DNA of 64,000 nucleotides, taken from NCBI GenBank assembly GCA_037893245.1, contig JBAIAA010000262.1, forward strand, positions 992,001 through 1,056,000, given 5' to 3'. Under the pieces are notes generated by a model, which had not been told where the DNA came from, made no database searches, and worked only from the letters and a program-made list of their open reading frames with translations. Every line of letters begins with the position of its first letter. The first letter of the stretch is position 1. This DNA comes from Crossaster papposus. Its lineage: Eukaryota; Echinodermata; Asteroidea; Velatida; Solasteridae. Shown here one piece after another: positions 1 through 64,000 of this stretch. Both the position numbers and the translations under genes were made by a program.

Positions 1-1943
1 AAAAATACCTCTTTAGCAGAGCGAGGTTTCGATCTTCGGACCTCTGGGTTATGGGCCCATCACGCTTCCACTGCGCCACTCTGCTCCATGTGAATTAAGA
101 AACAGAAAACAAAATTAAAAGAAAAAATTGTAAAAACATTCTAAAATATTTATTACATTTGAATAACAGTGAAGCAAAAATACCTCTTTAGCAGAACGAG
201 GTTGTGGTCCTCGGACATCTTGGTTATGGGCCCAGCACGCTCCCACTGCTCCACTATGCGTAACTATTTTTAATGAAAATGAAATCACTATTAAGGAAAT
301 AATTATCCTGAGCAGACCGAGGTTGTGGTCATCCGACCTCTCCGTTACTGACCAAGAAAGTGTCTACTTCGTCACTCTGAGTAGAGTACCACAAGTCATA
401 CCAAAAACTTGTTAGCAGAGCGAGGTTTCGATCCTCTGACCTCTGGGTTATGGGTCCAGCACGCGTCCACTGCGCCACTCTGCTTCATGTGAATTTAGAA
501 ACAACAAACAAAATTAAAGCAGACATTCTAAAAACATTCTAAAATATGTATTACATTTGAATAACAGTGAAGCAAAAATACCTATTTAGCCGAGCGAGGT
601 TTTGGTCATCGGACCTCTGGGTTATAGGCCCAACACGCTCCCACTGATCCACTATGGGTAACTATTTTTTAATGAAAATTAAATCACTATCAAGGAAATA
701 ATTATCTGGAGCAGACCGAGGTTGTGGTCATCCGAACTCTCGGTTACTTACCAAGAAAGTGTCTACTTCGTCACTCTGAGTCGAGTACCTCAAGTCATAC
801 CAAAAACTTGTTAGAAGAGCGATGTTTCGATCCTCGGACCTCTGGGTTATGGGCCCATCACGCTAACACTGCGCCACGCTGCTTCATGTGAATTTAGAAA
901 CAGCAAACAAAATTAAAGCACACATTGTAAACACATTCTAAAATATTTATTAAATTTGAATAACAGTGAAGCAAAAATACCTCTTTAGCAGAGCGAGGTT
1001 TCGATCTTCGGACCTCTGGGTTATGGGCCCATCACGCTTCCACTGCGCCACTCTGCTCCATGTGAATTAAGAAACAGAAAACAAAATTAAAAGAAAAAAT
1101 TGTAAAAACATTCTAAAATATTTATTACATTTGAATAACAGTGAAGCAAAAATACCTCTTTAGCAGAACGAGGTTGTGGTCCTCGGACATCTTGGTTATG
1201 GGCCCAGCACGCTCCCACTGCTCCACTATGCGTAACTATTTTTAATGAAAATGAAATCACTATTAAGGAAATCATTATCCTGAGCAGACCGAGGTTGTGG
1301 TCATCCGACCTCTCCGTTACTGACCAAGAAAGTGTCTACTTCGTCACTCTGAGTAGAGTACCACAAGTCATACCAAAAACTTGTTAGCAGAGCGAGGTTT
1401 CGATCCTCTGACCTCTGGGTTATGGGCCCAGCACGCGTCCACTGCGCCACTCTGCTTCATGTGAATTTAGAAACAACAAACAAAATTAAAGCAGACATTC
1501 TAAAAACATTCTAAAATATGTATTACATTTGAATAACAGTGAAGCAAAAATACCTATTTAGCCGAGCGAGGTTTTGGTCATCGGACCTCTGGGTTATAGG
1601 CCCAACACGCTCCCACTGCTCCACTATGGGTAACTATTTTTTAATGAAAATGAAATCACTATCAAGGAAATAATTATCCGGAGCAGACCGAGGTTGTGGT
1701 CATCCGAACTCTCGGTTACTTACCAATAAAGTGTCTACTTCGTCACTCTGAGTCGAGTACCTCAAGTCATACCAAAAACTTGTTAGAAGAGCGATGTTTC
1801 GATCCTCGGACCTCTGGGTTATGGGCCCATCACGCTAACACTGCGCCACGCTGCTTCATGTGAATTTAGAAACAGCAAACAAAATTAAAGCACACATTGT
1901 AAAAACATTCTAAAATATTTATTACATTTGAATAACAGTGAAG
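1..1943 (-). repeat. 972-bp higher-order repeat, 2 copies
   Basis: Bases 1-971 recur at 973-1943 with very few differences; for example the unusual tagaagagcgatg module is at 812 and 1784. Divergence resumes where the next unit begins ctctatagc. Confidence 0.85.
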
Positions 1944-3103
1944 CAAAAATACCTCTATAGCAGAACGAGGTTTTGGTTCTCGGACCTCTTGGTTATGGGC
2001 CCAGCACGCTCCCACTGCGCCACTCTGCTTCATGTGAATTTAGAAACAACAAACAAAATTAAAGCAGACATTCTAAAAACATTCTAAAATATGTATTACA
2101 TTTGAATAACAGTGAAGCAAAAATACCTCTTTAGCCGAGCGAGGTTTTGGTCCTCGGACCTCTGGGTTATGGGCCCAGCACGCTCCCACTGCTCCACTCT
2201 ACTTCTTGTGAATTTAGAAACTGCAAACAAAATGAAAGCAGACATTCTAAAAACATTCTAATATATTTATTAAATTTGAATAACAGTGAAGCAAAAATAC
2301 CTCTTTAGCAGAGCGAGGTTTGGGTCTTCGGACCTCTAGGTTATGGGCCCAGCACGCTCCCACTGCAACACTCTCTGTAACTATTTTTTCATGAAAATGA
2401 AATCACTATCAAGGAAATAATTATCCGGAGCAGACCGAGGTTGTGGTCATCCGAACTCTCGGTTACTGACTTAGAAAGTGTCTACTTCGTCACTCTGAGT
2501 CGAGTACCTCAAGTCATACCAAAAACTTGTTAGCAGAGCGAAGTTTCGATCTTCGGACCTCCGGGTTATGGGCCCATCACCCTTCCACTGCGCCACTCTG
2601 CTTCATGTGAATTTAGAAACAGCAAACAAAATTAAAGCACACATTGTAAAAACATTCAAAAATATTTATTACATTTGAATAACAGTGAAGCAAAAATACC
2701 TCTTTAGCCGAGCGAGATTTTGGTTCTCGGACCTCTGGGTTATGGGCCCAGCACGCTCCCACTGCTCCACTCTACTTCTTGTAAATTTAGAAACAGAAAA
2801 CAAAATGAAAGCAGACATTCTAAAAACATTCTAAAATATTTATCATATTTGAATAACAGTGAAGCAAAAATACCTATATAGCAGAGCGAGATTTGGGTCT
2901 TCGGACCTCTGGGTTATGGGCCCAGCACGCTCCCACTGCAACACTCTGCGTAGCTATTGTTTAATGAAAATGAAATCACTATCAAGGAAATAATTATCCT
3001 GAGCGGACCGAGGTTGTGGTCATCCGAACTCTCGTTTACTGACCAAGAAAGTGGCTACTTCATCACTCTGAGTCGAGTACCTTAAGTCATACCAAAAACT
3101 TGT

Positions 3104-3175
3104 TAGCAGAGCGAGGTTTCGATCCTCGGACCTCTGGATTATGGGCCCAGCACGCTTCCACTGCGCCACTCTGCT
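3104..3175 (-). tRNA. tRNA-iMet: tRNA-iMet (CAT), near-canonical
   Basis: One difference from the canonical copy, a G-U wobble at the innermost anticodon-stem pair. Anticodon CAT, initiator T-loop ATCGAAA, perfect acceptor stem and T5 terminator are kept. Confidence 0.85.
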
Positions 3176-3888
3176 TCATGTGAATTTAGAAACAGCAAAC
3201 AAAATTAAAGCACACATTCTAAAAACATTATAAAATATTTATTACATTTAAATAACAGTGAAGCAAACATACCTCTTTAGCAGAACGAGGTTTTGGTCCT
3301 CAGACCTCTTGGTTATGGGCCCAGCAAGCTCCCACTGCTCCACTATGCGTAACTATTTTTAATGAAAATGAAATCACTATTAAGGAAATAATTTGCCTGA
3401 GCAGACCGAGGTTGTGGTCATCCGACCTCTCCGTTACTGACCAAGAAAGTGTCTACTTCGTCACTCTGAGTAGATTACCTCAAGTAATACCAAAAACTTG
3501 ATAGCAGAGCGAGGTTTCAATCCTCGGACCTCTGGGTTATGGGCCCAGCAGGCTTCCACTGCGCCACTCTGCTTCATGTGTATTTAGAAACAACAAACAA
3601 AATTAAAGCAGACATTCTAAAATATTTATTAAATTTGAATAACAGTGAAGCAAAAATACCTCTTTAGCAGAGCGAGGTTTGGGTCTTCGGACGTCTGGGT
3701 TATGGGCCCAGCACGCTCCCACTGCAACACTATGCGTAACTATTTTTAATGAAAATGAAATCACTATTAAGGAAATAATTATCCTGAGCAGACCGAGGTT
3801 GTGGTCATCCGACCTCTCCGTTACTGACCAAGAAAGTGTCTACTTCGTCACTCTGAGTCGAGTACCTTAAGTCATACCAAAAACTTGT

Positions 3889-3960
3889 TAGCAGAGCAAG
3901 GTTTCGATCCTCGGACCTCTGGGTTATGGGCCCAGCACGCGTCCACTGCGCCACTCTGCT
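3889..3960 (-). tRNA. tRNA-iMet: tRNA-iMet (CAT), CCTTG T-stem type
   Basis: T-stem CGAGG/CCTTG contains one G-U pair, as in some insect initiator genes. The D-loop reads AGTGGACGC. CAT anticodon, acceptor stem, T-loop and T5 terminator are intact. This subtype recurs at 6442, 10554, 12722, 17645 and 20199. Confidence 0.82.
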
Positions 3961-6441
3961 TCATGTGAATTTAGAAACAACAAACAAAATTAAAGCAGAC
4001 ATTCTAAAAACATTCTAAAATATGTATTACATTTGAATAACAGTGAAGCAAAAATACCTCTTTAGCCGAGCGAGGTTTTGGTCCTCGGACCTCTGTGTTA
4101 TGGATCCAGCACGCTCCCACTGCTCCACTCTACTTCTTGTGAATTTAGAAACAGCAAACAAAATGAAAGCAGACATTCTAAAAACATTCTAAAATATTTA
4201 TTAAATTTGAATAACAGTGAAGCAAAAATACCTCTTTAGCAGAGCGAGGTTTGGGTCTTCGGACATCTGGATTATGGGCCCAGCACGCTCCCACTGCAAC
4301 ACTCTGCGTAACTATTTTTTCATGAAAATGAAATCACTATCAAGGAAATAATTATCCGGAGCAGACCGAGGTTGTGGTCATCCGACCTCTCCGTTACTGA
4401 CCAAGAAAGTGTCTACTTCGTCACTCTGAGTAGAGTACCTCAAGTCATACCAAAAACTTGTTAGCAGAGCGAGGTTTCGATCCTCGGACCTCTGGATTAT
4501 GGGCCCAGCACGCGTCCACTGTGCCACTCTGCTTCATGTGCATTTAGAAACAACAAACAAAATTAAAGCAGACATTATAAAAACATTCTAAAATATGTAT
4601 TACATTTGAATAACAGTTAAGCAAAAATACCTCTTTAGCCGAGCGAGGTTTTTGTCCTCGGACCTCTGGGTTATGGGCCCAACACGCTCCCACTGCTCCA
4701 CTATGGGTAACTATTTTTAATGAAAAGGAAATCACTATTCAGGAAATAATTATCCTGAGCAGACCGAGGTTGTGGTCATCCGACCTCTCCGTTACTGACC
4801 AAGAAAGTGTCTACTTCGTCACTCTTAGTAGAGTACCTCAAGTCATACCAAAAACTTGTTAGCAGAGCGAGGTTTCGATCCTCGGACCTCTAGGTTATGG
4901 GCCCAGCACGCTTCCACTGCGCCACTATGCTTCATGGGAATTTAGAAACAACAAACAAAATTAAAGCAGACATTCTAAAAAAATTCTAAAATATTTATTA
5001 AATTTGAATAACAGTGAAGAAAAAATACCTCTTTAGCAGAGCGAGGTTTGGGTCTTCGGACCTCTGGGTTATGGGCCCAGCACGCTCCCACTGCTCCACT
5101 GTGCGTAACTATTTTTAATGAAAAGGAAATCACTATTAAGGAAATAATTATCCTGAGCAGACCGAGGTTGTGGTCATCCGAACTCTCGGTTACTGACCAA
5201 GAAAGTGTCTACTTCGTCACTCTGAGTCGAGTACCTTAAGTCATACCAACAACTTGTTAGCAGAGGGAAGTTTCGATCTTCGGACCTCCGGGTTATGGGC
5301 CCATCACGCTTCCACTGCGCCACTCTGCTTCATGTGAATTTAGAAACAGCAAACAAAATTAAAGCACACATTGTAAAAACATTCTAAAATATTTATTACA
5401 TTTGAATAACAGTGAAGCAAAAATACCTCTTTAGCAGAACGAGGTTTTGGTCCTCGGACCTCTTGGTTATGGGCCCAGCACGCTCCCACTGCTCCACTGT
5501 GCGTAACTATTTTTAATGAAAAGGAAATCACTATTAAGGAAATAATTATCCTGAGCAGACCGAGGTTGTGGTCATCCGACCTCTCCGTTACTGACCAAGA
5601 AAGTGTCTACTTCGTCACTCTGAGTAGAGTACCTCAAGTCATACCAAAAACTTGTTAGCACAGCGAGGTTTCAATCCTCGGACCTCTGGGTTATGGGCCC
5701 AGCACGCTTCCACTGCGCCACTCTGCTTCATGTGAATTTAGAAACAACAAACAAAATTAAAGCAGACATTCTAAAATATTTATTAAATTTGAATAACAGT
5801 GAAGCAAAAATACCCCTTTAGCAGAGCGAGGTTTGGGTCTACGGACCTCTGGGTTATGGGCCCAGCACGCTCCCACTGCAACACTATGCGTAACTATTTT
5901 TAATGAAAATGAAATCACTATTAAGGAAATAATTATCCTGAGCAGACCGAGGTTGTGGTCATCCGACCTCTCCGTTACTGACCAAGAAAGTGTCTACTTC
6001 GTCACTCTGAGTCGAGTACCTCAAGTCATACCAAAAAGTTGTTAGCAGAGCGAAATTTCGATCTTTGGACCACTGGGTTATGGGCCCATCACGCTTCCAC
6101 TGCGCCACTCTGCTTCATGTGAATTTAGAAACAGCAAACAAAATTAAAGGAAAAAATTGTAAAAACATTCTAAAATATTTATTACATTTCAATAACAGTG
6201 AAGCAAAAATACCTCTTTAGCAGAACGAGGTTTTGGTCCTCGGACATCTTGGTTATGGGCCCAGCACGCTCCCACTGCTCCACTATCCGTAACTATTTTT
6301 AATGAAAATGAAATCACTATTAAGGAAATAATTATCCTGAGCAGACCGAGGTTGTGGTCATCCGACCTCTCCGTTACTGACCAAGAAAGTGTCTACTTCG
6401 TCACTCTGAGTCGAGTACCTTAAGTCATACCAAAAACTTGT

Positions 6442-6513
6442 TAGCAGAGCAAGGTTTCGATCCTCGGACCTCTGGGTTATGGGCCCAGCACGCGTCCACT
6501 GCGCCACTCTGCT
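6442..6513 (-). tRNA. tRNA-iMet: tRNA-iMet (CAT), CCTTG T-stem type
   Basis: Same subtype as 3889-3960: G-U in the T-stem, D-loop A-to-C change, all other identity elements intact, T5 downstream. Confidence 0.82.
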
Positions 6514-7014
6514 TCATGTGAATTTAGAAACAACAAACAAAATTAAAGCAGACATTCTAAAAACATTCTAAAATATGTATTACATTTGAATAACAGTGAA
6601 GCAAAAATACCTCTTTAGCCGAGCGATGTTTTGGTCCTCGGACCTCTGTGTTATGGGCCCAGCACGCTCCCACTGCTCCACTCTACTTCTTGTGAATTTA
6701 GAAACAGCAAACAAAATGAAAGCAGACATTCTAAAAACATTCTAAAATATTTATTAAATTTGAATAACAGTGAAGCAAAAATACCTCTTTAGCAGAGCGA
6801 GGTTTGGGTCTTCGGACCTCTGGATTATGGGCCCAGCACGCTCCCACTGCAACACTCTGCGTAACTATTTTTTCATGAAAATGAAATCACTATTAAGGAA
6901 ATAATTATCCTGAGCAGACCGAGGTTGTGGTCATCCGACCTCTCCGTTACTGACCAAGAAAGTGTCTACTTCGTCACTCTTAGAAGAGTACCTCAAGTCA
7001 TACCAAAAACTTGT

Positions 7015-7086
7015 TAGCAGAGCGAGGTTTCGATCCTCGGACCTCTAGGTTATGGGCCCAGCACGCTTCCACTGCGCCACTCTGCT
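7015..7086 (-). tRNA. tRNA-iMet: tRNA-iMet (CAT), near-canonical
   Basis: Differs from the canonical copy only by a G-U wobble in the middle of the anticodon stem (plus strand ctagg). A box, B box, acceptor stem and T5 terminator are intact. Confidence 0.87.
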
Positions 7087-7800
7087 TCATGTGAATTTAG
7101 AAACAACAAACACAATTAAAGCAGACATTCTAAAATATTTATTAAATTTGAATAACAGTGAAGCAAAAATACCTCTTTAGCAGAGCGAGGTTTGGGTCTA
7201 CGGACCTCTGGGTTATGGGCCCAGCACGCTCCCACTGCAACACTATGCGCAACTATTTTTAATGAAAATGAAATCACTATTAAGGAAATAATTATCCTGA
7301 GCAGACCGAAGTTGTGGTCATCCGACCTCTCCGTTACTGACCAAGAAAGTGTCTACTTCGTCACTCTGAGTCGAGTACCTCAAGTCATACCAAAAACTTG
7401 TTAGCACAGCGAGGTTTCAATCCTCGGACCTCTGGGTTATGGGCCCAGCACGCTTCCACTGCGCCACTCCGCTTCATGTGAATTTAGAAACAACAAACAA
7501 AATTAAAGCAGACATTCTAAAAACATTCTAAAATATTTATTAAATTTGAATAACAGTGAAGAAAAAATACCTCTTTAGCAGAGCGAGGTTTGGGTCTTCG
7601 GACCTCTGGGTTATGGGCCCAGCACGCTCCCACTGCAACACTCTGCGTAACTATTTTTTAATGAAAATTAAATCACTATCAAGGAAATAATTATCCGGAG
7701 CAGACCGAGGTTGTGGTCATCCGAACTCTCGGTTACTGACCAAGAAAGTGTCTACTTCGTCACTCTGAGTCGAGTACCTCAAGTCATACCAACAACTTGT

Positions 7801-7872
7801 TAGCAGAGGGAAGTTTCGATCTTCGGACCTCCGGGTTATGGGCCCATCACGCTTCCACTGCGCCACTCTGCT
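7801..7872 (-). pseudogene. alpha2-type degenerate iMet (representative)
   Basis: Representative of the commonest degraded alpha class. Plus-strand hallmarks are gagggaag, cctccgggtta and gcccatcac. They break T-stem pair 49-65 and the outer anticodon-stem pair but keep CAT and the T-loop. Many copies also have the terminator changed from TTTTT to TTGTT. The class recurs at 8199, 11527, 12324, 13695, 14890, 15288, 19015, 22989, 23786, 25779, 28171, 29366, 30561, 31745, 32143, 32939 and others. Confidence 0.7.
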
Positions 7873-8596
7873 TCATGTGAATTTAGAAACAGCAAACAAA
7901 ATTAAAGCACACATTGTAAAAACATTCTAAAATATTTATTACATTTGAATAACAGTGAAGCAAAAATACCTCTTTAGCAGAACGAGGTTTTGGTCCTCGG
8001 ACCTCTTGGTTATGGGCCCAGCACGCTCCCACTGCTCCACTGTGCGTAACTATTTTTAATGAAAAGGAAATCACTATTAAGGAAATAATTATCCTGAGCA
8101 GACCGAGGTTGTGGTCATCCGAACTCTCGGTTACTGACCAAGAAAGTGTCTACTTCGTCACTCTGAGTCGAGTACCTCAAGTCATACCAACAACTTGTTA
8201 GCAGAGGGAAGTTTCGATCTTCGGACCTCCGGGTTATGGGCCCATCACGCTTCCACTGCGCCACTCTGCTTCATGTGAATTTAGAAACAGCAAACAAAAT
8301 TAAAGCACACATTGTAAAAACCTTCTAAAATATTTATTACATTTGAATAACAGTGAAGCAAAAATACCTCTTTAGCAGAACGAGGTTTTGGTCCTCGGAC
8401 CTCTTGGTTATGGGCCCAGCACGCTCCCACTGCTCCACTGTGCGTAACTATTTTTAATGAAAAGGAAATCACTATTAAGGAAATAATTATCCTGAGCAGA
8501 CCGAGGTTGTGGTCATCCGACCTCTCCGTTACTGACCAAGAAAGTGTCTACTTCGTCACTCTGAGTAGAGTACCTCAAGTCATACCAAAAACTTGT

Positions 8597-8668
8597 TAGC
8601 ACAGCGAGGTTTCAATCCTCGGACCTCTGGGTTATGGGCCCAGCACGCTTCCACTGCGCCACTCTGCT
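8597..8668 (-). pseudogene. alpha3-type iMet, C56 changed (representative)
   Basis: Plus strand tagcacag and tttcaat: one acceptor mismatch, and T-loop C56 changed to T inside the B box, a position normally essential for TFIIIC binding and D-loop/T-loop contact. Also at 5656, 7402, 8984, 11925, 14093, 15686, 16073, 19413 and 30959. Confidence 0.65.
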
Positions 8669-9370
8669 TCATGAAAATTTAGAAACAACAAACAAAATTA
8701 AAGCAGACATTCTAAAATATTTATTAAATTTGAATAACAGTGAAGCAAAAATACCTCTTTAGCAGAGCGAGGTTTGGGTCTACGGACCTCTGGGTTATGG
8801 GCCCAGCACGCTCCCACTGCAACACTATGCGCAACTATTTTTAATGAAAATGAAATCACTATTAGGGAAATAATTATCCTGAGCAGACCGAAGTTGTGGT
8901 CATCGGACCTCTCCGTTACTGACCAAGAAAGTGTCTACTTCGTCACTCTGAGTAGAGTACCTCAAGTCATACCAAAAACTTGTTAGCACAGCGAGGTTTC
9001 AATCCTCGGACCTCTGGGTTATGGGCCCAGCACGCTTCCACTGCGCCACTCTGCTTCATTTGAATTTAGAAACAACAAACACAATTAAAGCAGACATTCT
9101 AAAATATTTATTCAATTTGAATAACAGTGAAGCAAAAATACCTCTTTAGCAGAGCGAGGTTTGGGTCTACGGACCTCTGGGTTATGGGCCCAGCACGCTC
9201 CCACTGCAACACTATGCGCAACTATTTTTAATGAAAATGAAATCACTATTAAGGAAATAATTATCCTGAGCAGACCGAAGTTGTGGTCATCCGACCTCTC
9301 CGTTACTGACCAAGAAAGTGTCTACTTCGTCACTCTGAGTCGAGTACCTCAAGTCATACCAAAAACTTGT

Positions 9371-9442
9371 TAGCACAGCGAGGTTTCGATCCTCGGACCT
9401 CTGGGTTATGGGCCCAGCACGCTTCCACTGCGCCACTCTGCT
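9371..9442 (-). tRNA. tRNA-iMet: tRNA-iMet (CAT), one acceptor mismatch
   Basis: Canonical except for one acceptor-stem change on the 3' strand (plus strand tagcacag), giving a G-G mismatch. The T-loop is intact, unlike most copies with this acceptor change, which also carry a C56 change. Confidence 0.72.
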
Positions 9443-10553
9443 TCATGTGAATTTAGAAACAACAAACAAAATTAAAGCAGACATTCTAAAAACATTCTAA
9501 AATATTTATTAAATTTGAATAACAGTGAAGCAAAAATACCTCTCTAGCAGAACGAGGTTTTGGTCCTCGGACATCTTGGTTATGGGCCCAGCACGCTCCC
9601 ACTGCTCCACTATGCGTAACTATTTTTAATGAAAATGAAATCACTATTAAGGAAATAATTATCCTGAGCAGACCGAGGTTGTGGTCATCCGACCTCTCCG
9701 TTACTGACCAAGAAAGTGTCTACTTCGTCACTCTGAGTAGAGTACCTCAAGTCATACCAAAAATTGTTAGCGGAGCGATGTTTCAATCCTCGGACCTCTG
9801 GGTTATGGGCCCAGCACGCTTCCACTGCGCCACTCTGCTTCATGTGAATTTAGAAACAACAAACAAAATTAAAGCAGACATTCTAAAATATTTATTAAAT
9901 TTGAACAACAGTGAAGCAAAAATACCTTTTTAGCAGAGCGAGGTTTGGGTCTACGGACCTCTGGGTTATGGGCCCAGCACGCTCCCACTGCAACACTATG
10001 CGTAACTATTTTTAATGAAAATGAAATCACTATTAGGGAAATAATTATCCTGAGCAGACCGAGGTTGTGGTCATCCGACCTCTCCGTTACTGACCAAGAA
10101 AGTGTCTACTTCGTCACTCTGAGTCGAGTACCTCAAGTCATACCAAAAAGTTGTTAGCAGAGCGAAATTTCGATCTTCGGACCTCTGGGTTATGGGCCCA
10201 TCACGCTTCCACTGCGCCACTCTGCTTCATGTGAATTTAGAAACAGCAAACAAAATTAAAGGAAAAAATTGTAAAAACATTCTAAAATATTTATTACATT
10301 TCAATAACAGTGAAGCAAAAATACCTCTTTAGCAGAACGAGGTTTTGGTCCTCGGACATCTTGGTTATGGGCCCAGCACGCTCCCACTGCTCCACTATCC
10401 GTAACTATTTTTAATGAAAATGAAATCACTATTAAGGAAATAATTATCCTGAGCAGACCGAGGTTGTGGTCATCCGACCTCTCCGTTACTGACCAAGAAA
10501 GTGTCTACTTCGTCACTCTGAGTCGAGTACCTTAAGTCATACCAAAAACTTGT

Positions 10554-10625
10554 TAGCAGAGCAAGGTTTCGATCCTCGGACCTCTGGGTTATGGGCCCAG
10601 CACGCGTCCACTGCGCCACTCTGCT
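10554..10625 (-). tRNA. tRNA-iMet: tRNA-iMet (CAT), CCTTG T-stem type
   Basis: Same subtype as 3889-3960, with T5 downstream. It is duplicated at 12722 by the 2168-bp higher-order repeat. Confidence 0.82.
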
Positions 10626-11127: not shown

Positions 11128-11199
11128 TAGCAGAGCGAGGTTTCGATCCTCGGACCTCTAGGTTATGGGCCCCGCACGCTTCCACTGCGCCACTCTGCT
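11128..11199 (-). tRNA. tRNA-iMet: tRNA-iMet (CAT), position 26-27 variant
   Basis: Like 7015-7086 but with cccgcac in place of cccagcac on the plus strand, which costs the second anticodon-stem pair. The same diagnostic change is at 13296-13367, 2168 bp away. Confidence 0.7.
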
Positions 11200-44402: not shown

Positions 44403-44494
44403 GCGATTCGTAAAAGAAGACAGACGCGGCCACCATGGCTACGGGTGAGGGTGTTTGGCACCACCATAGTAACCTTCACGTAACCCCATACCTG

Positions 44495-50900: not shown

Positions 50901-50901
50901 C

Positions 50902-52449: not shown

Positions 52450-52451
52450 GT

Positions 52452-53570: not shown

Positions 53571-53752
53571 AAATGTTGATGTATTCGTTTGAGTACCGGG
53601 GCGAATTAGAATGCATCTATTTTATCATTGATATGTTAATGTGTATGCTCCAGTGGTCAGGGCGGGTATTTTGAATGGGTGCGGTAGGCACTGCTAGTGG
53701 GAGTAATGTGTCACTTCACGCTTGCTAGCAGCAACGACAACACATACAATTT
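53571..53752 (+). repeat. Split direct repeat A1
   Basis: 182 bp starting aaatgttgatgtattcg; 180 of 182 positions match A2. Confidence 0.92.
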
Positions 53753-53783
53753 TATGCTGTTGCAATTCTCCATACGTTTCAAC

Positions 53784-54443: not shown

Positions 54444-55800
54444 CAAGGACATCGCAGCAAGCACGTCAAGAAATATCAATAAAGTTGAGTTAAATTATTT
54501 AACTGATAATTACTTTGAGTACGAAGAAAGGTGTTCCATAGGTTGCAACATTCAAGTGTCTGGTCGTTTGCATCAACACTATGAATTCTGGAATTCAATT
54601 AAAGCCAATTCCTTTGTTCTAGATATAATAAAGAACGGTTACATGCTGCCGTTCTATGAAACACCTCCACGTACCCCAAGAGTAGAAAAAGTCAATTACG
54701 GGGTGAATAATCGTCCGGCTATCAATAACAACAATTTTGTTACCGAGGCCATTTCAGACTTATTAGAAACGCAGTGTGTTTTGATTTGTACCGAGCAACC
54801 ATTTATAATTAACCCATTGTCGGTTTCAGTACAGAAATCAGGTAAGCGGAGACTGATATTAGATTTAAGAGAAGTGAATAAGTATTTGTGGAAACAATCC
54901 GTCAAGTTTGAAGATATGCGTACAGCTCTGATATATCTTTCGAAGGGCGGATCTATGTTCCAGTTTGACCTCAAATCGGGATACCATCATATCAGCATTC
55001 GACCAGAACACCAACAATTTTTGGGATTTTCTTGGATTTACAACGGCTCGTTTACATTTTTCAAGTTTACTGTTTTACCGTTCGGTTTATCCACTGCCCC
55101 GTATGTTTTCACTAAAGTGGTAAGGCCATTAGTACAACAGTGGAGAAGCGAAGGAAAACAAATAGTAGTGTTTCTAGATGATGGTTTGGGATGTGCAGAT
55201 TGCTTTCAGAAAGCCAAAGAGCACAGTGCTCAAGTTAAAGTTGACCTGGTCAACGCGGGGTTCGTACCCAATATACAAAAGAGTATTTGGGATCCGGTCT
55301 CAGAGACCGAGTGGTTAGGTTTAACAATTAACCTTAACAATGGCTCCCTTGTTTTACCACACAGACGGATAAGCAGTATCAAGGAAGGAATCCAAGAACT
55401 GTTGACTCCCAAGTTAGCAGGTTCGTTAACCTGGGTCAAAGCCAAGGATCTAGCTAGTGTAGCTGGTAGGATCATTTCATCATATTTAGTAGTGGGATCA
55501 ATGAGTAGGATCATGACCAAAGCTATGCATTGTGCAATCGAATCCAGAGATTCGTGGAATTCCAAAGTTCTCATTTCAGAGCAAGCTAAAGAAGAACTTC
55601 TTTTCTGGCAGAACAACTTAGATAATCTAAAGGAAACTCCAATAAATGTCAATCCCATGTGTTCAAGAATAGTGTTTTCCGATGCAAGCAAATCCGGGTT
55701 TGGAGGTTACATAGTAAATGCCAACGACTCCATTAGTCACGGACTGTGGTCAGAAAACGAACAGAAAATGAGCTCGACCTGGAGAGAATTAAAGCAATAG
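54154..55800 (+). pseudogene. RT and N-terminal RNase H of YR retrotransposon
   Basis: A 548-codon frame; the first 100 or so codons overlap the gag ORF and may not be coding, with homology-like content starting near 54480. RT motifs: KRRLILDLREVNKYL, motif A FQFDLKSGYHH with D272, motif B LPFGLSTAPYVF, motif C FLDD at residues 340-343 (F in place of the usual Y), then WLGLTINL. RNase H begins with FSDASKSGFGGY (D510). The frame stops at 55798-55800 one residue after WRELK, where RNase H should continue; the rest lies in another frame. It copies element RNA into cDNA in the family. Broken by a single-base loss in an A-run or by an assembly error there. Confidence 0.8.
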
Positions 55801-56489
55801 AAATTGTTCTTACCTCTCAAATAAACAAGTTCAAAAACAATAGAGTAAAATGGTTTTCTGACAATCAAGCAGTTACAAGAATAGTTTCCAATGGCAGCAT
55901 GAAGCCAGAGTTGCAGTCTATTGCGCCAGACATATGTCGTACTTGTTTACGTAATGGATTATTTCTAGAATTGGAATGGGTGCCGAGAGCAAAGAATGAA
56001 AAGGCAGATTTTCTAAGTAAGATAGTTGATTATGACGATTGGCAGACTTCAGATGAAATGTTCTCTGTACTCGATCGCAATTGGGGACCTTTTACTATCG
56101 ATCGGTTTGCCAGCTATTATAATTCCAAATTAAGTTGTTTTAATTCTAGGTACTGGAACCCAGGCACACAGGCAACCGACGCATTTACACAAGATTGGAC
56201 AGGGCATAATAACTGGATGGTTCCCCCTATTCATTTGGTTCCAAGAGTTATTCAACAGCTATTGGCCAGTAAAGCTGAGGGTACATTAATATGCCCTGCT
56301 TGGAGATCCGCCCCTTATTGGGTGTTACTATTTCCAGATGGTTACAATCCAATATCCGAAATTACTGATATTTATGAATTTGTGAGTCCTTTCCCACTAT
56401 TTGAAAACGGGCGAAGTGATAACTCTAAGTTTATTTACAATATTGTACGCAGTACAGTACTAGCGCTGAGGTTCAGCAGGTATGAATGA
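55746..56489 (+). pseudogene. RNase H C-terminal half and post-RNase H domain
   Basis: Continuation of pol after the frameshift, meaningful from about 55790. RNase H features: DNQAV, then LEWVPRAKNEKADFLSK, whose terminal D is catalytic in the family. A conserved DIRS/Ngaro-type segment follows with FTIDRFASYYNSK, ATDAFTQDW, NNWMVPPIHLVPRVI and CPAWRSAPYWVLL. The stop at 56487-56489 is probably the natural end of pol. The ATG at 55746 is out of context and is not the real start. Confidence 0.75.
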
Positions 56490-56951
56490 GTTTCCCGTTT
56501 AACAACGTTCATAACGTTAACGAGCAACTTGCGCTCGATGGTGCACCTGGTGCACCTGGTGCAGGGACCCCCAGCGGGTCAGTTCCTAAATTGAGGAAAA
56601 GTGATTGAACATTCAATACAGCGTTCATAATTTATTAACTGAGAGTTTTAACAAATGTTGTTTAATTTTCTTCGTCAAGCTAATTTTCAACACCGACAAC
56701 TGGAGACACCGTTTCACTCGGAGTGCCAACAGTCCAGATCTGAACAATCTCGCCAAACAGCTGTCCTCCATATTGGTGAACTCAAGAGCCTCAATTTAAG
56801 ATCCGGAGGAGCCTCAGAGGCCGCCAAGGCTGGTATAGCCGATAGACTGTTCAAGCGCCATGGTCGCTGGAAGTCGGAGACGGCTAAAGATTCCTATGTT
56901 CAAGAAAGCTTCCATAATTTATTATCCGTTTCCAAGCGGTTATGTATCTAA
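56490..56951 (+). pseudogene. Truncated tyrosine recombinase
   Basis: Only the C-terminal catalytic part is readable (frame ending at 56951): LRSGGASEAAKAG supplies the second Arg region, FKRHGRW the H/W-containing box, and KDSYV the nucleophile Tyr, typical of DIRS-class recombinases. The N-terminal domain and the first catalytic Arg box are missing, and the usual HxxR has no His at R-3. Upstream, 56520-56585 encodes a Gly-Ala-Pro repeat (ggtgcacct three times) that may be the residue of the recombinase N-terminus. At about a third of the expected size it cannot be functional. Confidence 0.7.
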
Positions 56952-56978
56952 CATCTACTCGTTCTTTATTTTGTTCAT

Positions 56979-57059
56979 GCCGGTTGCTGCAGCTCGCACA
57001 ATACCAAAATGATTGGGTATGCTGTGTTTTGTTTGTGTATACGATGATTTAAATGATAA
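56979..57059 (+). repeat. Split direct repeat B1
   Basis: 81 bp from gccggttgctgcagc to aaatgataa; one mismatch to B2 (57648-57728). It abuts A2 with a shared AA. Confidence 0.92.
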
Positions 57060-57239
57060 ATGTTGATGTATTCGTTTGAGTACCGGGGCGAATTAGAATG
57101 CATATATTTTATCATTGATATGTTAATGTGTATGCTCCAGTGGTCAGGGCGGGTATTTTGAATGGGTGCGGTACGCACTGCTAGTGGGAGTAATGTGTCA
57201 CTTCACGCTTGCTAGCAGCAACGACAACACATACAATTT
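57058..57239 (+). repeat. Split direct repeat A2
   Basis: 182 bp matching A1 except for a c/a and a g/c substitution. Confidence 0.92.
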
Positions 57240-57647
57240 AATTTAATTGTCTATATTGTATATAATAATTAATCACTAGATTAATTTTGCTCTTATAATT
57301 ATTGAATTATGTTGACAAGCGAAGCTCCCTTTATATGCCTTATATTGTTTAGCTAGCCTGAGAGTGGCGATCTGCATTGGTCAGGCATACGTTTCCACTT
57401 TTCCCAAAATTATAAAAAGATAGGTTTTTGTGGTTTTTCGTATCTGGCGATCGCTATAAACAATATGTCGAATTCAACTTAACTTATAACGTTGAAAAAT
57501 ATATCGATATATATACATGTATAAGTATACAGTTATTGGCAATGTGGTGTTTTGCCCAAGTTGAAGCAGTAATGTCGAAGTAATAATGTTGTCGTAGTAG
57601 TAGTAGAAGTAGTAGTAGTAGTAGTATTTAAAGTGGGCGGGTTCTAC
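57240..57647. other. A2-B2 spacer with (TAG)n microsatellite
   Basis: 408 bp, AT-rich, no gene. A tag trinucleotide run spans 57594-57627. A spacer here is normal for the split-repeat layout. Confidence 0.8.
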
Positions 57648-57728
57648 GCCGTTTGCTGCAGCTCGCACAATACCAAAATGATTGGGTATGCTGTGTTTTG
57701 TTTGTGTATACGATGATTTAAATGATAA
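57648..57728 (+). repeat. Split direct repeat B2
   Basis: 81 bp right end of the element; the array resumes with taattattctgagcagacc. Confidence 0.92.
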
Positions 57729-58397
57729 TAATTATTCTGAGCAGACCGAGGTTGTGGTCATCCGAACTCTCGGTTACTGACCAAGAAAGTGTCTACTTCG
57801 TCACTCTGAGTCGAGTACCTCAAGTCATACCAAAAACTTGTTAGCAGAGCGAGGTTTCGATCTTTGTACATCTTGGTTAAGGGCCCAGCATGCTTCCACT
57901 GCGCCACTCTACTTCATGTAAAGTTAGAAACAGCAAACAAAATGAAAGCAGACATTCTAAAAACATTCTAAAATATGTATTACATTTGAATAACAGTGAA
58001 GCAAAAATACCTTTTTAGCAGAGCGAGGTTTTGGTCTTCGGACCTCTGGGTTATGGGCCCAGCACGCTCCCACTGCAACACTCTGCGTAACTATTTTTAA
58101 TGAAAATGAAATCACTATCAAGGAAATAATTATTCTGAGCAGACCGAGGTTGTGGTCATCCGAACTCTCGGTTACTGACCAAGAAAGTGTCTACTTCGTC
58201 ACTCTGAGTCTAGTACCTCAAGTCATACCAAAAACTTGTTAGCAGAGCAAAATGAAAATGAAAATGAAATCACTATCAAGGACATAATTATCATGAGCAG
58301 ACCAAGGTTGTGGTCATCCGAAATATCGGTTACTGGCCAAGAAAGTGTCTACTTCGTCACTCTGAGTCGAGTACCTCAAGTCATACCAAAAACGTGT

Positions 58398-58467
58398 TAG
58401 CAGAGCGAGGTTTCGATCTTCGGACCTTGGGTTAAGGGCCCAGCACGCTTCCACTGCGCCACTCTAC
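58398..58467 (-). tRNA. Shortened iMet-body tRNA with CTT anticodon
   Basis: CTT-anticodon copy with two bases missing at the variable loop/anticodon-stem border (plus strand ggaccttgggttaagg). It is representative of 40008, 60893, 61448, 62401 and 62956. The acceptor contains a G-U (ctctact). Probably a pseudogene, but strongly amplified in the right block. Confidence 0.5.
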
Positions 58468-59938
58468 TTCATGTAAAGTTAGAAACAGCAAACAAAATGA
58501 AAGCAGACATTATAAAAACATTCTAAAATATTTATTAAATTTGAATAACAGTTAAGCAAAAATCCCTCTTTAGCAGAGCGAGGTTTTGGTCTTCGGACCT
58601 CTGGGTTATGGGCCCAGCACGCTCCCACTGCAACACTCTGCGTAACCATTTTTAATGAAAATGAAATCACTATCAAGGAAATAATTATCCTGAGCAGACC
58701 GAGGTTGTGGTCATCTGAACTCTCGGTTACTGACCAAGAAAGTGTCTACTTCGTCACTCTGAGTCGAGTACCTCAAGTCATACCAAAAACTTGTTAGCAG
58801 AGCGAGGTTTCGATCTTCGGACCTCTGGGTTATGGGCCCAGCACGCTTCCACTGCGCCAATCTGTTTCATGTGAATTTAGAAACAGAAAACAAAATGAAA
58901 GCAGACATTCTAAAAACATTCTAAAATATGTATTACATTTGAATAACAGTGAAGCAAAAATACCTCTTTAGCAGAGCGAGGTTTTGGTCTTCGGACCTCT
59001 GGGTTAAGGGCCCAGCACGCTCCCACTGCACCACTCTGCGTAACTATTTTTAATGAAAATGAAATCACTATCAAGGACATAATTATCCTTAGCAGACCGA
59101 GGTTGCGGTCATCCGAAATATCGGTTACTGGCCAAGAAAGTGTCTACTTCGTCACTCTGAGTCGAGTACATCAAGTCATACCAAAAACTTGTTAGCAGAG
59201 CCAGGTTTCGATTCTCGGACCTCTGGGTTATGGGCCCAGCACGCTTCCACTGCGCCACTCTGCTTCATGTGAATTTAGAAACAGCAAACAAAATTAAAGC
59301 AGACATTCTAAAAACATTCTAAAATATGTATTACATTTGAATAACAGTGAAGCAAAAATACCTCTTTAGCAGAGCGAGGTTTTGGTCCTCGGACATCTGG
59401 GTTATGGGCCCAGCACGCTCCCACTGCTCCACTCTACTTCATGTAAATTTAGAAACAGCAAACAAAATGAAAGCAGACATTCTAAAAACATTCTAAAATA
59501 TTTATTAAATTTGAATAACAGTGAAGCAAAAATACCTCTTTAGCAGAGCGAGGTTTCGGTCCTCGGACATCTGGGTTATGGGCCCAGCACGCTCACACTG
59601 CTCCACTCTACTTCATGTAAATTTAGAAACAGCAAACCAAATGAAAGCAGACATTCTAAAAACATTCTAAAATATGTATTAAATTTGAATAACAGTTAAG
59701 CAAAAATCCCTCTTTAGCAGAGCGAGGTTTTGGTCTTCGGACCTCTGGGTTATGGGCCCAGCACGCTCCCACTGCAACACTCTGCGTAACTATTTTTAAT
59801 GAAAATGAAATCACTATCAAGGAAATAATTATCCTGAGCAGACCAAGGTTGTGGTCATCCGAACTCTCGGTTACTGACCAAGAAAGTGTCTACTTCGTCA
59901 CTCTGAGTCGAGTACCTCAAGTGATACCAAAAACTTGT

Positions 59939-60010
59939 TAGCAGAGCGAGGTTTCGATCCTCGGACCTCTGGGTTATGGGCCCAGCACGCTTCCACTGCG
60001 CCACTCTGCT
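59939..60010 (-). tRNA. tRNA-iMet: tRNA-iMet (CAT), canonical copy
   Basis: The best copy in the window. On the minus strand it folds into 7-bp acceptor AGCAGAG/CTCTGCT, 5-bp anticodon stem CTGGG/CCCAG with loop CCCATAA (anticodon CAT, C33 as in animal initiators), and T-stem CGAGG/CCTCG with loop ATCGAAA. A60/A54-type initiator T-loop features, an intact A box (TGGCGCAGTGG) and B box (GGATCGAAACC) are present. The discriminator is A, and a TTTTT Pol III terminator lies 5 nt downstream. It delivers initiator methionine to the 40S ribosome. Confidence 0.95.
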
Positions 60011-60112
60011 TCATGTGAATTAAGAAACAGCAAACAAAATGAAAGCAGACATTCTAAAAACATTCTAAAATATTTATTACATTTGAATAACAGTGAAGCA
60101 AAAATACCTCTT

Positions 60113-60184
60113 TAGCAGAGCGAGGTTTTGGTCTTCGGACATCTGGGTTATGGGCCCAGCACGCTCCCACTGAAACACTCTGCG
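60113..60184 (-). pseudogene. beta module, iMet-like (representative)
   Basis: A 72-nt module collinear with iMet. Anticodon CAT is kept, but the T-loop reads ACCAAAA (T55 changed to C), weakening the B box, and the 5' acceptor/D-arm segment differs (here CGCAGAG, mismatched at pair 1-72; elsewhere AGTAGAG or CGCATAG). A T5 run lies 9 nt downstream on the minus strand. One such module occurs in nearly every unit. Confidence 0.7.
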
Positions 60185-63150
60185 TAACTATTTTTAATGA
60201 AAATGAAATCACTATCAAGGAAATAATTATTCTGAGCAGACCGAGGTTGTGGTCATCCGAACTCTCGGTTACTGACCAAGAAAGTGTCTACTTCGTCACT
60301 CTGAGTCGAGTACCTCAAGTCATACCAAAAACTTGTTAGCAGAGCGAGGTTTCGATCTTTGGACATCTTGGTTAAGGGCCCAGCACGCTTCCATTGCGCC
60401 ACTCTACTTCATGTAAAGTTAGAAACAGAAAACAAAATGAAAGCAGACATTCTAAAAACATTCTAAAATATTTATTACATTTGAATAACAGTGAAGCAAA
60501 AATACCTCTTTAGCAGAGCGAGGTTTTGGTCTTCGGACCTCTGGGTTATGGGCCCAGCACGCTCCCACTGCAACACTCTGCGTAACTATTTTTAATGAAA
60601 ATGAAATCACTATCAAGGAAATAATTATTCTGAGCAGACCGAGGTTGTGGTCATCCGAACTCTCGGTTACTGACCAAGAAAGTGTCTACTTCGTCACTCT
60701 GAGTCGAGTACCTCAAGTCATACCAAAAACTTGTTAGCAGAGCGAAATGAAAATGAAAATGAAATCACTATCAAGGACATAATTATCCTGAGCAGACTGA
60801 GGTTGTGGTCATCCGAAATATCGGTTACTGGCCAAGAAAGTGTCTACTTCGTCACTCTGAGTCGAGTACCTCAAGTCATACCAAAAACGTGTTAGCAGAG
60901 CGAGGTTTCGATCTTCGGACCTTGGGTTAAGGGCCCAGCACGCTTCCATTGCGCCACTCTACTTCATGTAAAGTTAGAAACAGCAAACAAAATGAAAGCA
61001 GACAATCTAAAAACATTGTAAAATATGTATTACATTTGAATAACAGTGAAGCAAATATACCTCTTTAGCAGAGCGAGGTTTTGGTCTTCGGACCTCTGGG
61101 TTAAGGGCCCAGCACGCTCCCACTGCACCACTCTGCGTAACTATTTTTAATGAAAATGAAATCACTATCAAGGACATAATTATCCTTAGCAGACCGAGGT
61201 TGCGGTCATCCGAAATATCGGTTACTGGCCAAGAAAGTGTCTACTTCGTCACTCTGAGTCGAGTATCTCAAGTCATACCAAAAACTTGTTAGCAGAGCGA
61301 AATGGAAATGACAATGAAATCACTATCAAGGACATAATTATCCTGAGCAGACCGAGGTTGTGGTCATCCGAAATATCGGTTACTGGCCAAGAAAGTGTCT
61401 ACTTTGTCACTCTGAGTCGAATACCTCAAGTCATACCAAAAACGTGTTAGCAGAGCGAGGTTTCGATCTTCGGACCTTGGGTTAAGGGCCCAGCACGCTT
61501 CCACTGCGCCACTCTACTTCATGTAAAGTTAGAAACAGCAAACAAAATGAAAGCAGACATTCTAAAAACATTCTAAAATATTTATTAAATTTGAATAACA
61601 GTTAAGCAAAAATCCCTCTTTAGCAGAGCGAGGTTTTGGTCTTTGGACATCTGGGTTATGGGCCCAGCACGCTCCCACTGAAACACTCTGCGTAACTATT
61701 TTTAATGAAAATGAAATCACTATCAAGGAAATAATTATTCTGAGCAGACCGAGGTTGTGGTCATCCGAACTCTCGGTTACTGACCAAGAAAGTGTCTACT
61801 TCGTCACTCTGAGTCGAGTACCTCAAGTCATACCAAAAACTTGTTAGCAGAGCGAGGTTTCGATCTTTGGACATCTTGGTTAAGGGCCCAGCACGCTTCC
61901 ATTGCGCCACTCTACTTCATGTAAAGTTAGAAACAGAAAACAAAATGAAAGCAGACATTCTAAAAACATTCTAAAATATTTATTACATTTGAATAACAGT
62001 GAAGCAAAAATACCTCTTTAGCAGAGCGAGGTTTTGGTCTTCGGACCTCTGGGTTATGGGCCCAGCACGCTCCCACTGCAACACTCTGCGTAACTATTTT
62101 TAATGAAAATGAAATCACTATCAAGGAAATAATTATTCTGAGCAGACCGAGGTTGTGGTCATCCGAACTCTCGGTTACTGACCAAGAAAGTGTCTACTTC
62201 GTCACTCTGAGTCGAGTACCTCAAGTCATACCAAAAACTTGTTAGCAGAGCGAAATGAAAATGAAAATGAAATCACTATCAAGGACATAATTATCCTGAG
62301 CAGACTGAGGTTGTGGTCATCCGAAATATCGGTTACTGGCCAAGAAAGTGTCTACTTCGTCACTCTGAGTCGAGTACCTCAAGTCATACCAAAAACGTGT
62401 TAGCAGAGCGAGGTTTCGATCTTCGGACCTTGGGTTAAGGGCCCAGCACGCTTCCATTGCGCCACTCTACTTCATGTAAAGTTAGAAACAGCAAACAAAA
62501 TGAAAGCAGACATTCTAAAAACATTGTGAAATATGTATTACATTTGAATAACAGTGAAGCAAATATACCTCTTTAGCAGAGCGAGGTTTTTGTCTTCGGA
62601 CCTCTGGGTTAAGGGCCCAGCACGCACCCACTGCACCACTCTGCGTAACCATTTTTAATGAAAATGAAATCACTATCAAGGACATAATTATCCTTAGCAG
62701 ACCGAGGTTGCGGTCATCCGAAATATCGGTTACTGGCCAAGAAAGTGTCTACTTCGTCACTCTGAGTCGAGTATCTCAAGTCATACCAAAAACTTGTTAG
62801 CAGAGCGAAATGGAAATGACAATGAAATCACTATCAAGGACATAATTATCCTGAGCAGACCGAGGTTGTGGTCATCCGAAATATCGGTTACTGGCCAAGA
62901 AAGTGTCTACTTTGTCACTCTGACTCGAGTACCTCAAGTCATACCAAAAACGTGTTAGCAGAGCGAGGTTTCGATCTTCGGACCTTGGGTTAAGGGCCCA
63001 GCACGCTTCCACTGCGCCACTCTACTTCATGTAAAGTTAGAAACAGCAAACAAAATGAAAGCAGACATTCTAAAAACATTCTAAAATATTTATTAAATTT
63101 GAATAACAGTTAAGCAAAAATCCCTCTTTAGCAGAGCGAGGTTTTGGTCT
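60140..63150 (-). repeat. 1508-bp higher-order repeat, 2 copies
   Basis: Two blocks, each containing two cut-and-joined units (60742 and 61297 versus 62250 and 62805). They share the markers gaaacactctgcg, gcttccattgcg and gacaatgaaatc. Confidence 0.82.
60234..60305 (-). pseudogene. gamma module, fossil tRNA (representative)
   Basis: A 72-nt segment that aligns gap-free to iMet: T-arm region cgagg-ttgtggt-catcc, anticodon stem ctcgg/ccaag with loop ttactga on the plus strand. In RNA the anticodon stem still forms 5 pairs, with loop TCAGTAA (position 34-36 AGT). Only 4 of 7 acceptor and 3 of 5 T-stem pairs remain, B-box A58 is lost, and no T4 or longer run follows. Probably not transcribed by Pol III. 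Confidence 0.65.
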
Positions 63151-63352
63151 TTGGACCTCTGGGTTATGGGCCCAGCACGCTCCCACTGCAACACTCTGCG
63201 TAACTATTTTTAATGAAAATGAAATCACTATCAAGGAAATAATTATCCTGAGCAGACCGAGGTTGTGGTCATCCGAACTCTCGGTTACTGACCAAGAAAG
63301 TGTCTACTTCGTCACTCTGAGTCGAGTACCTCAAGTCATACCAAAAACATGT

Positions 63353-63424
63353 TAGCAGAGCGAGGTTTCGATCCTCGGACCTCTGGGTTATGGGCCCAGC
63401 ACGCTTCCACTGCGCCACTCTGTT
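63353..63424 (-). tRNA. tRNA-iMet: tRNA-iMet (CAT), one acceptor mismatch
   Basis: The body is canonical apart from the 5' acceptor base (plus strand ctctgtt), which gives an A-C mismatch at pair 2-71. T5 terminator present. Confidence 0.75.
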
Positions 63425-64000
63425 TCATGTGAATTTAGAAACAGCAAACAAAATGAAAGCAGACATTCTAAAAACATTCTAAAATATGTATTACATTTGA
63501 ATAACAGTGAAGCAAAAATACCTGTTTAGCAGAGCGAGGTTTTGGTCTTCGGACCTCTGGATTAAGGGCCCAGCACGCTCCCACTGCACCACTCTGCGTA
63601 ACTATTTTTAATGAAAATGAAATCACTATCAAGGACATAATTATCCTTAGCAGACCGAGGTTGCGGTCATCCGAAATATTGGTTAATGGCCAAGAAAGTG
63701 TCTACTTCGTCACTCTGAGTCGAGTACCTCAAGTCATACCCAAAACTTGTTAGCAGAGCCAGGTTTCGATTCTCGGACCTCTGGGTTATGGGCCCAGCAC
63801 GCTTCCACTGCGCCACTCTGCTTCATGTGAATTTAGAAACAGCAAACAAAATTAAAGCAGACATTCTAAAAACATTATAAAATATTTATTAAATTTGAAT
63901 AACATTTAAGCAAAAATCCCTCTTTAGCAGAGCGAGGTTTTGGTCTTCGGACCTCTGGGTTATGGGCCCAGCACGCTCCCACTGCTCCACTCTACTTCAT

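What the first reader, a model, noticed from the sequence alone, without database searches (positions are those of the whole stretch)
1..64000. Initiator tRNA genes amplified as a satellite-like tripartite array
About 48.5 kb of the window is one strictly oriented array with a 398-bp unit carrying three collinear 72-nt iMet-derived modules, about 115 of them alpha-type. Animal genomes usually carry a modest number of iMet genes. Tandem tRNA arrays are known (for example the Xenopus 3.18-kb tDNA repeat and Entamoeba tDNA arrays), but a mono-isotype initiator satellite with built-in fossil copies is unusual. It may raise initiator tRNA output, act as a Pol III/TFIIIC chromatin domain, or simply be selfish satellite DNA.
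Basis: partly seen in the sequence, partly recalled or inferred. Interest (0 to 1): 0.9.

Follow-up and report, generated by a model that had tools for sequence, protein, structure and literature searches.

The report
Megabase satellite made of initiator-tRNA genes
In this animal genome, probably an echinoderm, the gene for the tRNA that starts every protein has been turned into a megabase-scale tandem repeat with over a thousand perfect copies and many decayed ones, while a small ordinary cluster of the same gene elsewhere shows the conservation expected of working genes.

Summary
The window holds about 48.5 kb of array, all on the minus strand: 115 alpha, 128 beta and 117 gamma modules, most often as a 398-bp alpha-gamma-beta unit. 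114 of 115 alpha copies pass Rfam's tRNA cut-off.

The window's own genome could be searched (1.02 Gb, 1841 contigs). The array spans about 2.3 Mb of contig C262 (20 of 20 sampled points), parts of C146 (7 of 20), and was found on 14 contigs (4 by a 26-mer only). The exact 72-nt initiator tRNA occurs 1,281 times.

In the array alpha is no better conserved than its flanks (divergence ratio 1.20), and the window's commonest alpha has two broken stem pairs and usually no terminator. Five stand-alone iMet genes on C885 are 72/72 identical despite diverged flanks, a built-in positive control.

Best reading: a satellite born from an initiator-tRNA gene, spread by unequal exchange rather than kept for tRNA output; a new variant of a known kind (tRNA-related satellites). 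Mitochondrial evidence points to an echinoderm. Transcription, chromatin state and any centromere role are untested.

The parts
1..41109 (-). main block of the iMet satellite in the window (alpha-gamma-beta units, modal 398 bp)
   Evidence: runs off the left edge (array also fills the adjoining stretch L013)
52450..53570 (-). array segment between the two insertions
57729..64000 (-). array segment to the right window edge; array also in the adjoining stretch L014
59939..60010 (-). the only exactly canonical alpha module of the window (72/72 iMet; best Rfam score of the window, 58.7 bits), followed by ACAAGTTTTT
59835..59907 (-). gamma module of the same unit (fossil iMet; gamma copies have 22 or more changes, none has an exact A or B box)
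59714..59785 (-). beta module of the same unit (beta copies have about 8 changes; exact A or B box in 0 of 128)
5258..5329 (-). example of the commonest window alpha haplotype (26 copies): C26A, A41G, G51A, C61T, G64C; two unpaired stem positions; TTGTT instead of TTTTT downstream in 21 of 26
21865..31816 (-). higher-order region: unit types A and B largely alternate; best self-match lag 797 bp (measured on 21001-31000)
34952..40078 (-). higher-order region: L-K-J-M, L-K-J-M, L-K-J-Q; best self-match lag 1768 bp
41110..52449 (.). insertion in the array (end sequences repeated inside it; 74-bp tandem repeat at 48674-49956); 6 ORFs tried, no Pfam match
53571..57728 (+). DIRS/PAT-like retrotransposon with split direct repeats inserted in the array

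Best explanation
This is a satellite DNA that arose from an initiator-tRNA gene. An iMet gene was duplicated in tandem; one copy decayed early (gamma), another later (beta), a third stayed intact (alpha), and the three-module unit then spread by unequal exchange, partly with crossovers inside the tRNA-like modules, into higher-order repeats and megabase blocks, beside other satellites. Shown here: homology of the modules, tandem and higher-order structure, scale, hybrid modules, and no alpha-specific constraint. Inferred: the order of events, unequal exchange as the mechanism, a heterochromatic place, and that the array is largely silent. The cell most likely draws its initiator tRNA from ordinary genes such as the C885 cluster (inference); many array copies could be transcribed if the chromatin allowed it.
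For: Modules: mean changes from canonical alpha 3.5, beta 8.3, gamma 22.9. Scale: 20 of 20 sample points from 0.30 to 2.60 Mb on C262 are array (16 of 1 kb; 4 of 300 bp); 7 of 20 1-kb samples on C146; 1,281 exact iMet genome-wide, the five C885 genes included; 3,094 exact gamma cores; satellite on 14 contigs, 10 read and 4 by an exact 26-mer. Higher-order repeats, 22 unit types at 3%. Hybrid alpha/beta modules at 14, 986, 1958, 36647, 38415, 32541, 33337. No alpha constraint: deviation per site alpha .0385, sp1 .0251, sp2 .0279, sp3 .0381, gamma .0230, beta .0451 in 289 units; alpha/flank pairwise divergence 1.20. Commonest window alpha is defective. Positive control: five C885 iMet genes 72/72 identical, 100-bp flanks 43-91% identical. 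217-, 86- and 67-bp satellites on the same contigs.
Against: Over a thousand perfect copies survive, and canonical is the commonest alpha in the 264 kb sampled (67 of 566). 126 of 566 alpha have all stems paired, CAT, exact A and B boxes and a T4 run, so transcription capacity may remain. Against base-specific spacer rates alpha changes at 0.75 of expectation, which could be weak constraint, though gamma (0.50) and spacer 1 (0.64) are lower still. Stretch C146:6.396-6.446 Mb is richer in intact copies (31 of 138 canonical). The sample was not random. No chromatin or expression data.
Confidence: 0.83

Rival explanations
1. A functional gene amplification: the array supplies initiator tRNA in bulk, for instance in oocytes or early embryos, and selection keeps enough intact copies.
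For: 1,281 exact copies genome-wide; 203 of 566 sampled alpha have exact A box, B box and a T4 run; a T run starts 5 nt after 78 of 115 window alpha; some stretches are rich in canonical copies (12 of 28 in L028).
Against: Alpha is not more conserved than its flanks; the commonest window haplotype is defective and in 21 of 26 copies lacks the terminator; 15 of 115 window alpha read CTT; a separate conserved iMet cluster exists, and an upstream motif shared by four of its five genes is absent from the window.
Confidence: 0.1
2. A chromosome element: the array's A/B boxes bind TFIIIC/Pol III and form a boundary, condensin site or centromere/pericentromere domain; the tRNA sequence serves as a binding site, not as a gene.
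For: Megabase blocks with higher-order repeats, orientation switches and satellite neighbours; 424 of 566 sampled alpha keep the exact A box and 287 the exact B box.
Against: The exact B box is in 287 of 566 sampled alpha and in 0 of 128 window beta, with no excess conservation of alpha; no binding data; contigs are not placed on chromosomes.
Confidence: 0.2
3. An assembly artefact: copies multiplied or joined wrongly.
For: Satellites are hard to assemble; exact lengths could be wrong. Read depth was not available.
Against: 71 distinct sequences among 91 window units, insertions with clean edges, presence on 14 contigs with distinct subfamilies, transitions into other satellites.
Confidence: 0.04
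4. A SINE-derived satellite: the unit came from a tRNA-headed retroposon and not from a gene duplicate.
For: Precedents in reptiles (PMC10702118, passages).
Against: The alpha consensus is a complete canonical tRNA, both ends included; the unit shows no SINE body or tail by inspection (no library of SINEs was searched); the five stand-alone iMet copies fetched align to the unit for at most about 10 bp beyond the tRNA, apart from one AT-rich 68% extension of L081 against gamma's flank. Dispersed single units were not searched for systematically.
Confidence: 0.05

Closest known systems
PolIII/TAN (Hirt) tandem repeat of the newt Cynops, ~360 nt with a tRNA-related sequence; Rana/polIII; Xenopus OAX (as described in PMC10702118, passages read)
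   Same: Tandem repeats with a tRNA-related, Pol III-type sequence; the newt unit is of similar length
   Different: In the passages these are tRNA-related or only partly tRNA-like sequences; here alpha is an exact initiator tRNA present in over a thousand perfect copies, with three modules of different age per unit and a conserved stand-alone gene cluster in the same genome
Large tDNA clusters of animals (zebrafish, stickleback, Nematostella; PMC2888827, abstract and passages)
   Same: Many clustered tRNA genes and pseudogenes; clusters of fifty and more members reported
   Different: The passages read mention no initiator-tRNA satellite; here megabases with higher-order repeats and satellite neighbours
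Xenopus 3.18-kb tDNA repeat (recalled; one search listed only one paper, on trypanosomatid tRNA genes, which I did not open) and Entamoeba tRNA arrays (PMC2652664, listing and abstract start)
   Same: tRNA genes in tandem repeat units
   Different: Units with several tRNA genes (Entamoeba up to 5 per unit by the abstract; Xenopus several isotypes, recalled); here one isotype with two fossil modules per unit
SINE-derived satellites of scaled reptiles (PMC10702118, passages)
   Same: Short Pol III-related unit turned into satellite
   Different: Derived from SINEs with body and LINE-derived region; here a full tRNA gene sequence with a terminator

Membership tests
Metazoan initiator tRNA (features recalled) | CAU anticodon, A1:U72 pair, three G-C pairs in the anticodon stem, A54 and A60 in the T loop, internal A and B boxes | tested here: met
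   Canonical alpha 59939-60010 shows these by reading; 58.7 bits to RF00005; identical to five stand-alone genes on C885
Working initiator-tRNA gene set | Body more conserved than flanks | tested here: not met
   For array alpha as a group: alpha/flank divergence 1.20; the C885 genes do show constraint
Satellite DNA | Long head-to-tail arrays, megabase scale | tested here: met
   20 of 20 sample points over 0.30-2.60 Mb of C262; insertions occur inside (window, L009)
Satellite DNA | Higher-order repeats / local homogenisation | tested here: met
   797-bp and 1768-bp higher-order periods
Satellite DNA | Heterochromatic, centromeric or telomeric location | not testable with these tools
   Only other satellites nearby shown
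Multi-isotype tDNA repeat (Xenopus type, recalled) | Several different tRNA genes per unit | tested here: not met
   All 360 modules found by the iMet-based queries are iMet-like; ARAGORN's Lys/Leu calls are anticodon mutants of iMet bodies
SINE-derived satellite | Related dispersed SINE with body and tail | tested here: inconclusive
   Five stand-alone iMet copies lack unit spacers; no systematic search for dispersed units
Echinoderm (host) | Mitochondrial code 9 and nad4L between cox1 and cox2 (order recalled) | tested here: met
   7 of 10 AAA codons of COX1 fall at Asn of the mammalian chain, 2 at Lys; no AGA of 8 at Arg; ATA mostly at Ile (counted by eye); nad4L between cox1 and cox2. Flatworms share code 9; the tRNA between cox1 and nad4L was not called
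PAT-like DIRS retrotransposon (53571-57728) | RT, methyltransferase-like domain, split direct repeats, tyrosine recombinase | tested here: inconclusive
   RVT_1 and Dam over cut-off, zinc knuckles below cut-off, no recombinase match; split repeats A1/A2 98.4%, B1/B2 98.8%

The most novel reading that the evidence does not exclude
The initiator-tRNA satellite is the centromeric or pericentromeric DNA of several chromosomes of this animal, with its thousands of A/B boxes used as TFIIIC/Pol III sites, and with over a thousand perfect iMet genes held silent in the soma and perhaps opened in the germ line.
Probability: 0.2. Interest if true: 0.9.

Novelty: new variant of a known kind. Interest (0 to 1): 0.75.

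Why it matters
An essential gene, the initiator tRNA, has become megabase satellite DNA, with working-type genes, decaying copies and fossils in one genome. That allows direct tests of how a cell copes with over a thousand perfect copies of an initiator tRNA gene (silencing of Pol III in satellite DNA, dosage control), of how satellites are born, and of whether TFIIIC sites can take part in a centromere-type domain in an animal. It also warns that tRNA gene counts from such genomes may say little about tRNA supply.

Tried and rejected
Dosage amplification was tested by conservation: alpha against spacers in 289 units and in 4,000 random pairs, with C885 as positive control; not supported. Compensatory change: G51A/C61T restores a pair in the commonest haplotype, but two other pairs are broken in it; not pursued further, and the alignment of 46 alpha copies was not used for pair counts. 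Related sequence elsewhere: exact gamma and iMet patterns gave 0 matches in viral contigs and genome contigs, whose answers warn that records of the window's genome may be left out. Ten paper searches (one search listed 30 of 91 papers) listed no description of an initiator-tRNA satellite; open-licence PMC papers only, so this is no proof of absence. PMC10886601 (passages) concerns LTR elements with tRNA-like sequences and does not match; PMC11955569 (passages) mentions fish satellites with tRNA-derived parts. Intron-permitting ARAGORN gave 'intron' tRNAs spanning two modules and was discarded. The 11.3-kb insertion gave no Pfam match in the six ORFs tried.

Limits: the 264 kb read were chosen around known hits, not at random; the 40 one-kb and 12 300-bp samples were at positions I chose. 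C885 genes were found by an exact 33-nt 5' half, so only 39 nt of each body are unbiased evidence. L001-L008, L086 and the non-array 1-kb samples L050-L055 were not analysed further. An earlier count said '8/20' for C146; one search shows 7 of 20.
Full report
What is in the window. The iMet array covers about 48.5 kb (1-41109, 52450-53570, 57729-64000) and runs off both ends. All 360 modules lie on the minus strand: 115 alpha, 128 beta, 117 gamma. In transcription order a unit is alpha, mostly 31 bp, gamma, 49-50 bp, beta, mostly 101-102 bp (90 bp in 11 cases), next alpha; 91 complete units have a 398-bp consensus whose alpha part is exactly the canonical initiator tRNA. Rfam's tRNA model reaches its gathering score on 137 modules: 114 of 115 alpha and 23 of 128 beta. 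Mean changes from canonical are 3.5 (alpha), 8.3 (beta) and 22.9 (gamma); exact A and B boxes are together present in 32 of 115 alpha and in no beta or gamma; a T4 run lies within 25 nt after 86 of 115 alpha, 115 of 128 beta and 0 of 117 gamma.

State of the alpha copies. There are 48 alpha haplotypes in the window; one copy (59939-60010) is exactly canonical. The commonest haplotype (26 copies) has five changes, two unpaired stem positions, and in 21 of 26 a TTGTT in place of the TTTTT terminator. Fifteen alpha and seven beta read CTT, one alpha CAA, and four beta AAT or TAT; this accounts for ARAGORN's nine Lys and one Leu calls.

How it spreads. Clustering 91 units at 3% gives 22 types; types A and B largely alternate (best lag 797 bp in 21-31 kb) and L-K-J-M recurs with a lag of 1768 bp. 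The module string also holds 4 alpha-alpha, 15 beta-beta, 5 gamma-gamma and 2 beta-gamma junctions, and some modules are hybrids, one type's body with the other's 3' flank, for example 14-85, 986-1057, 1958-2029, 32541-32612. Unequal exchange within the tRNA-like modules would leave this (inference).

Scale. The window is C262:992001-1056000 of a 1.023-Gb assembly in 1841 contigs. Of twenty 1-kb samples on C262, 16 are array, all those from 0.40 to 2.48 Mb; 300-bp samples at 0.30, 0.35, 2.56 and 2.60 Mb are array, those at 0.25, 2.65, 2.70 and 2.75 Mb are not, so the block is about 2.3 Mb, with insertions (two in the window, one of 9.3 kb in L009). On C146, 7 of 20 1-kb samples are array and 0 of 4 edge samples. 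Orientation flips between sub-arrays. The exact 72-nt iMet occurs 1,281 times genome-wide, the five C885 genes below included, and the exact 41-nt gamma core 3,094 times; reversed-pattern controls gave 0. In 264 kb read (window plus 20 stretches of 10 kb) there are 566 alpha, 562 beta, 523 gamma; scaling by the exact counts gives roughly 3.6 to 5.0 Mb of array and some 10,000 alpha, a rough figure from a non-random sample that leaves diverged subfamilies out. Array sequence was read on ten contigs (C13, C79, C146, C163, C255, C262, C271, C723, C783, C833) and marked on four more (C424, C648, C784, C815) by one exact 26-mer. The two main contigs also hold a 217-bp satellite (C146 at 4.0, 4.2, 4.8, 5.2 Mb and the start of L021), an 86-bp satellite near the right ends of both, and a 67-bp satellite (C262, 2.8 Mb).

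Is the tRNA kept by selection? In 289 aligned units from the window and 19 of the 20 fetched 10-kb stretches, deviation from consensus per site is alpha .0385, beta .0451, gamma .0230, spacers .0251.0279 and .0381; a bootstrap over loci puts alpha above the spacer mean by .0076 (.0014 to .0126). G+C sites vary more; against base-specific spacer rates the observed/expected ratios are alpha 0.75, beta 0.89, gamma 0.50, spacers 0.64, 0.90 and 1.18, so any slowing of alpha is not special to the tRNA. In 4,000 random pairs between loci, alpha/flank divergence is 1.20; in the 725 pairs with flank divergence of 8% or more alpha differs by 7.9%, and 3 of 725 have identical alpha. The same genome supplies a positive control: five stand-alone canonical iMet genes on C885 (between 563 and 575 kb; found) are 72/72 identical while their 100-bp flanks are 43-91% identical. 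They were found by an exact 33-nt 5' half, so 39 nt are unbiased. Four of the five share an upstream motif that does not occur in the window at the mismatches allowed. Against this: canonical is still the commonest alpha in the sample (67 of 566), 203 of 566 alpha have exact A box, B box and T4, and 126 of 566 also have all stems paired and CAT. Many copies could be transcribed if accessible.

Host. On the mitochondrial contig C1841, 7 of 10 AAA codons of COX1 fall where the mammalian chain has Asn (2 where it has Lys), AGA never at Arg (0 of 8), ATA mostly at Ile, which fits code 9; nad4L lies between cox1 and cox2. From recall this order marks echinoderms; flatworms share the code.

Verdict. 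The most likely reading is a satellite born from an initiator-tRNA gene and spread by unequal exchange; supply of the tRNA most likely rests on ordinary genes such as C885 (inference). Satellites with tRNA-related sequences are known (newt, frogs, reptiles; PMC10702118, passages), and large tDNA clusters are known in fish and Nematostella (PMC2888827, passages). What differs here: an exact initiator tRNA, over a thousand perfect copies, three modules of different age, megabase blocks, many contigs. Ten paper searches listed no such case, within open-licence PMC only. Chromatin state, expression and chromosomal place remain open.

Noticed in passing
window 53571-57728: DIRS/PAT-like retrotransposon (RT and methyltransferase-like matches, weak zinc knuckle) with split direct repeats 98-99% alike, so probably a young insertion.
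   Followed up: partly
window 41110-52449: 11.3-kb insertion whose end sequences recur inside it (41109-41189 like 41436-41517; 41372-41437 like 52385-52451), as if two elements stood in tandem; class unknown.
   Followed up: partly
window 48674-49956: 74-bp tandem repeat, 17.4 copies, inside that insertion, with a short inverted motif like CGAGGTCC..CCTCGG.
   Followed up: no
L059, L060, L062, L063 and L021:1-2624 (C146): A 217-bp satellite on C146 beside and between iMet blocks.
   Followed up: partly
L048 and L068: The same 86-bp satellite near the right ends of both C262 and C146.
   Followed up: no
L047 (C262 at 2.80 Mb); L029 (C262 start): A 67-bp satellite (96% matches) and a roughly 177-bp repeat.
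   Followed up: no
L009:420-9710: 9.3-kb insertion in the array with several open frames of up to 291 aa; 178 bp are 68% like the window's 11.3-kb insertion.
   Followed up: no
L017:5781-7669, L021:3272-5655, L021:6128-7688: Three copies, about 89-93% alike, of an inserted repeat of 1.6-2.4 kb; the L017 copy carries an 18-bp tandem repeat.
   Followed up: no
C8:5208663-5210009 (L086): A COX1-family match without inner stops on C8, unlike the mitochondrial one with 13 TGA; C8 may be a bacterial contig in the assembly.
   Followed up: no
window 36074, 36473, 58398 and others: iMet bodies with anticodon CTT (15 alpha, 7 beta); if expressed, an initiator body that would read a Lys codon.
   Followed up: partly
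L081-L084 (C885): Four iMet genes share an upstream element about 35-75 bp before the gene, a candidate external promoter.
   Followed up: partly
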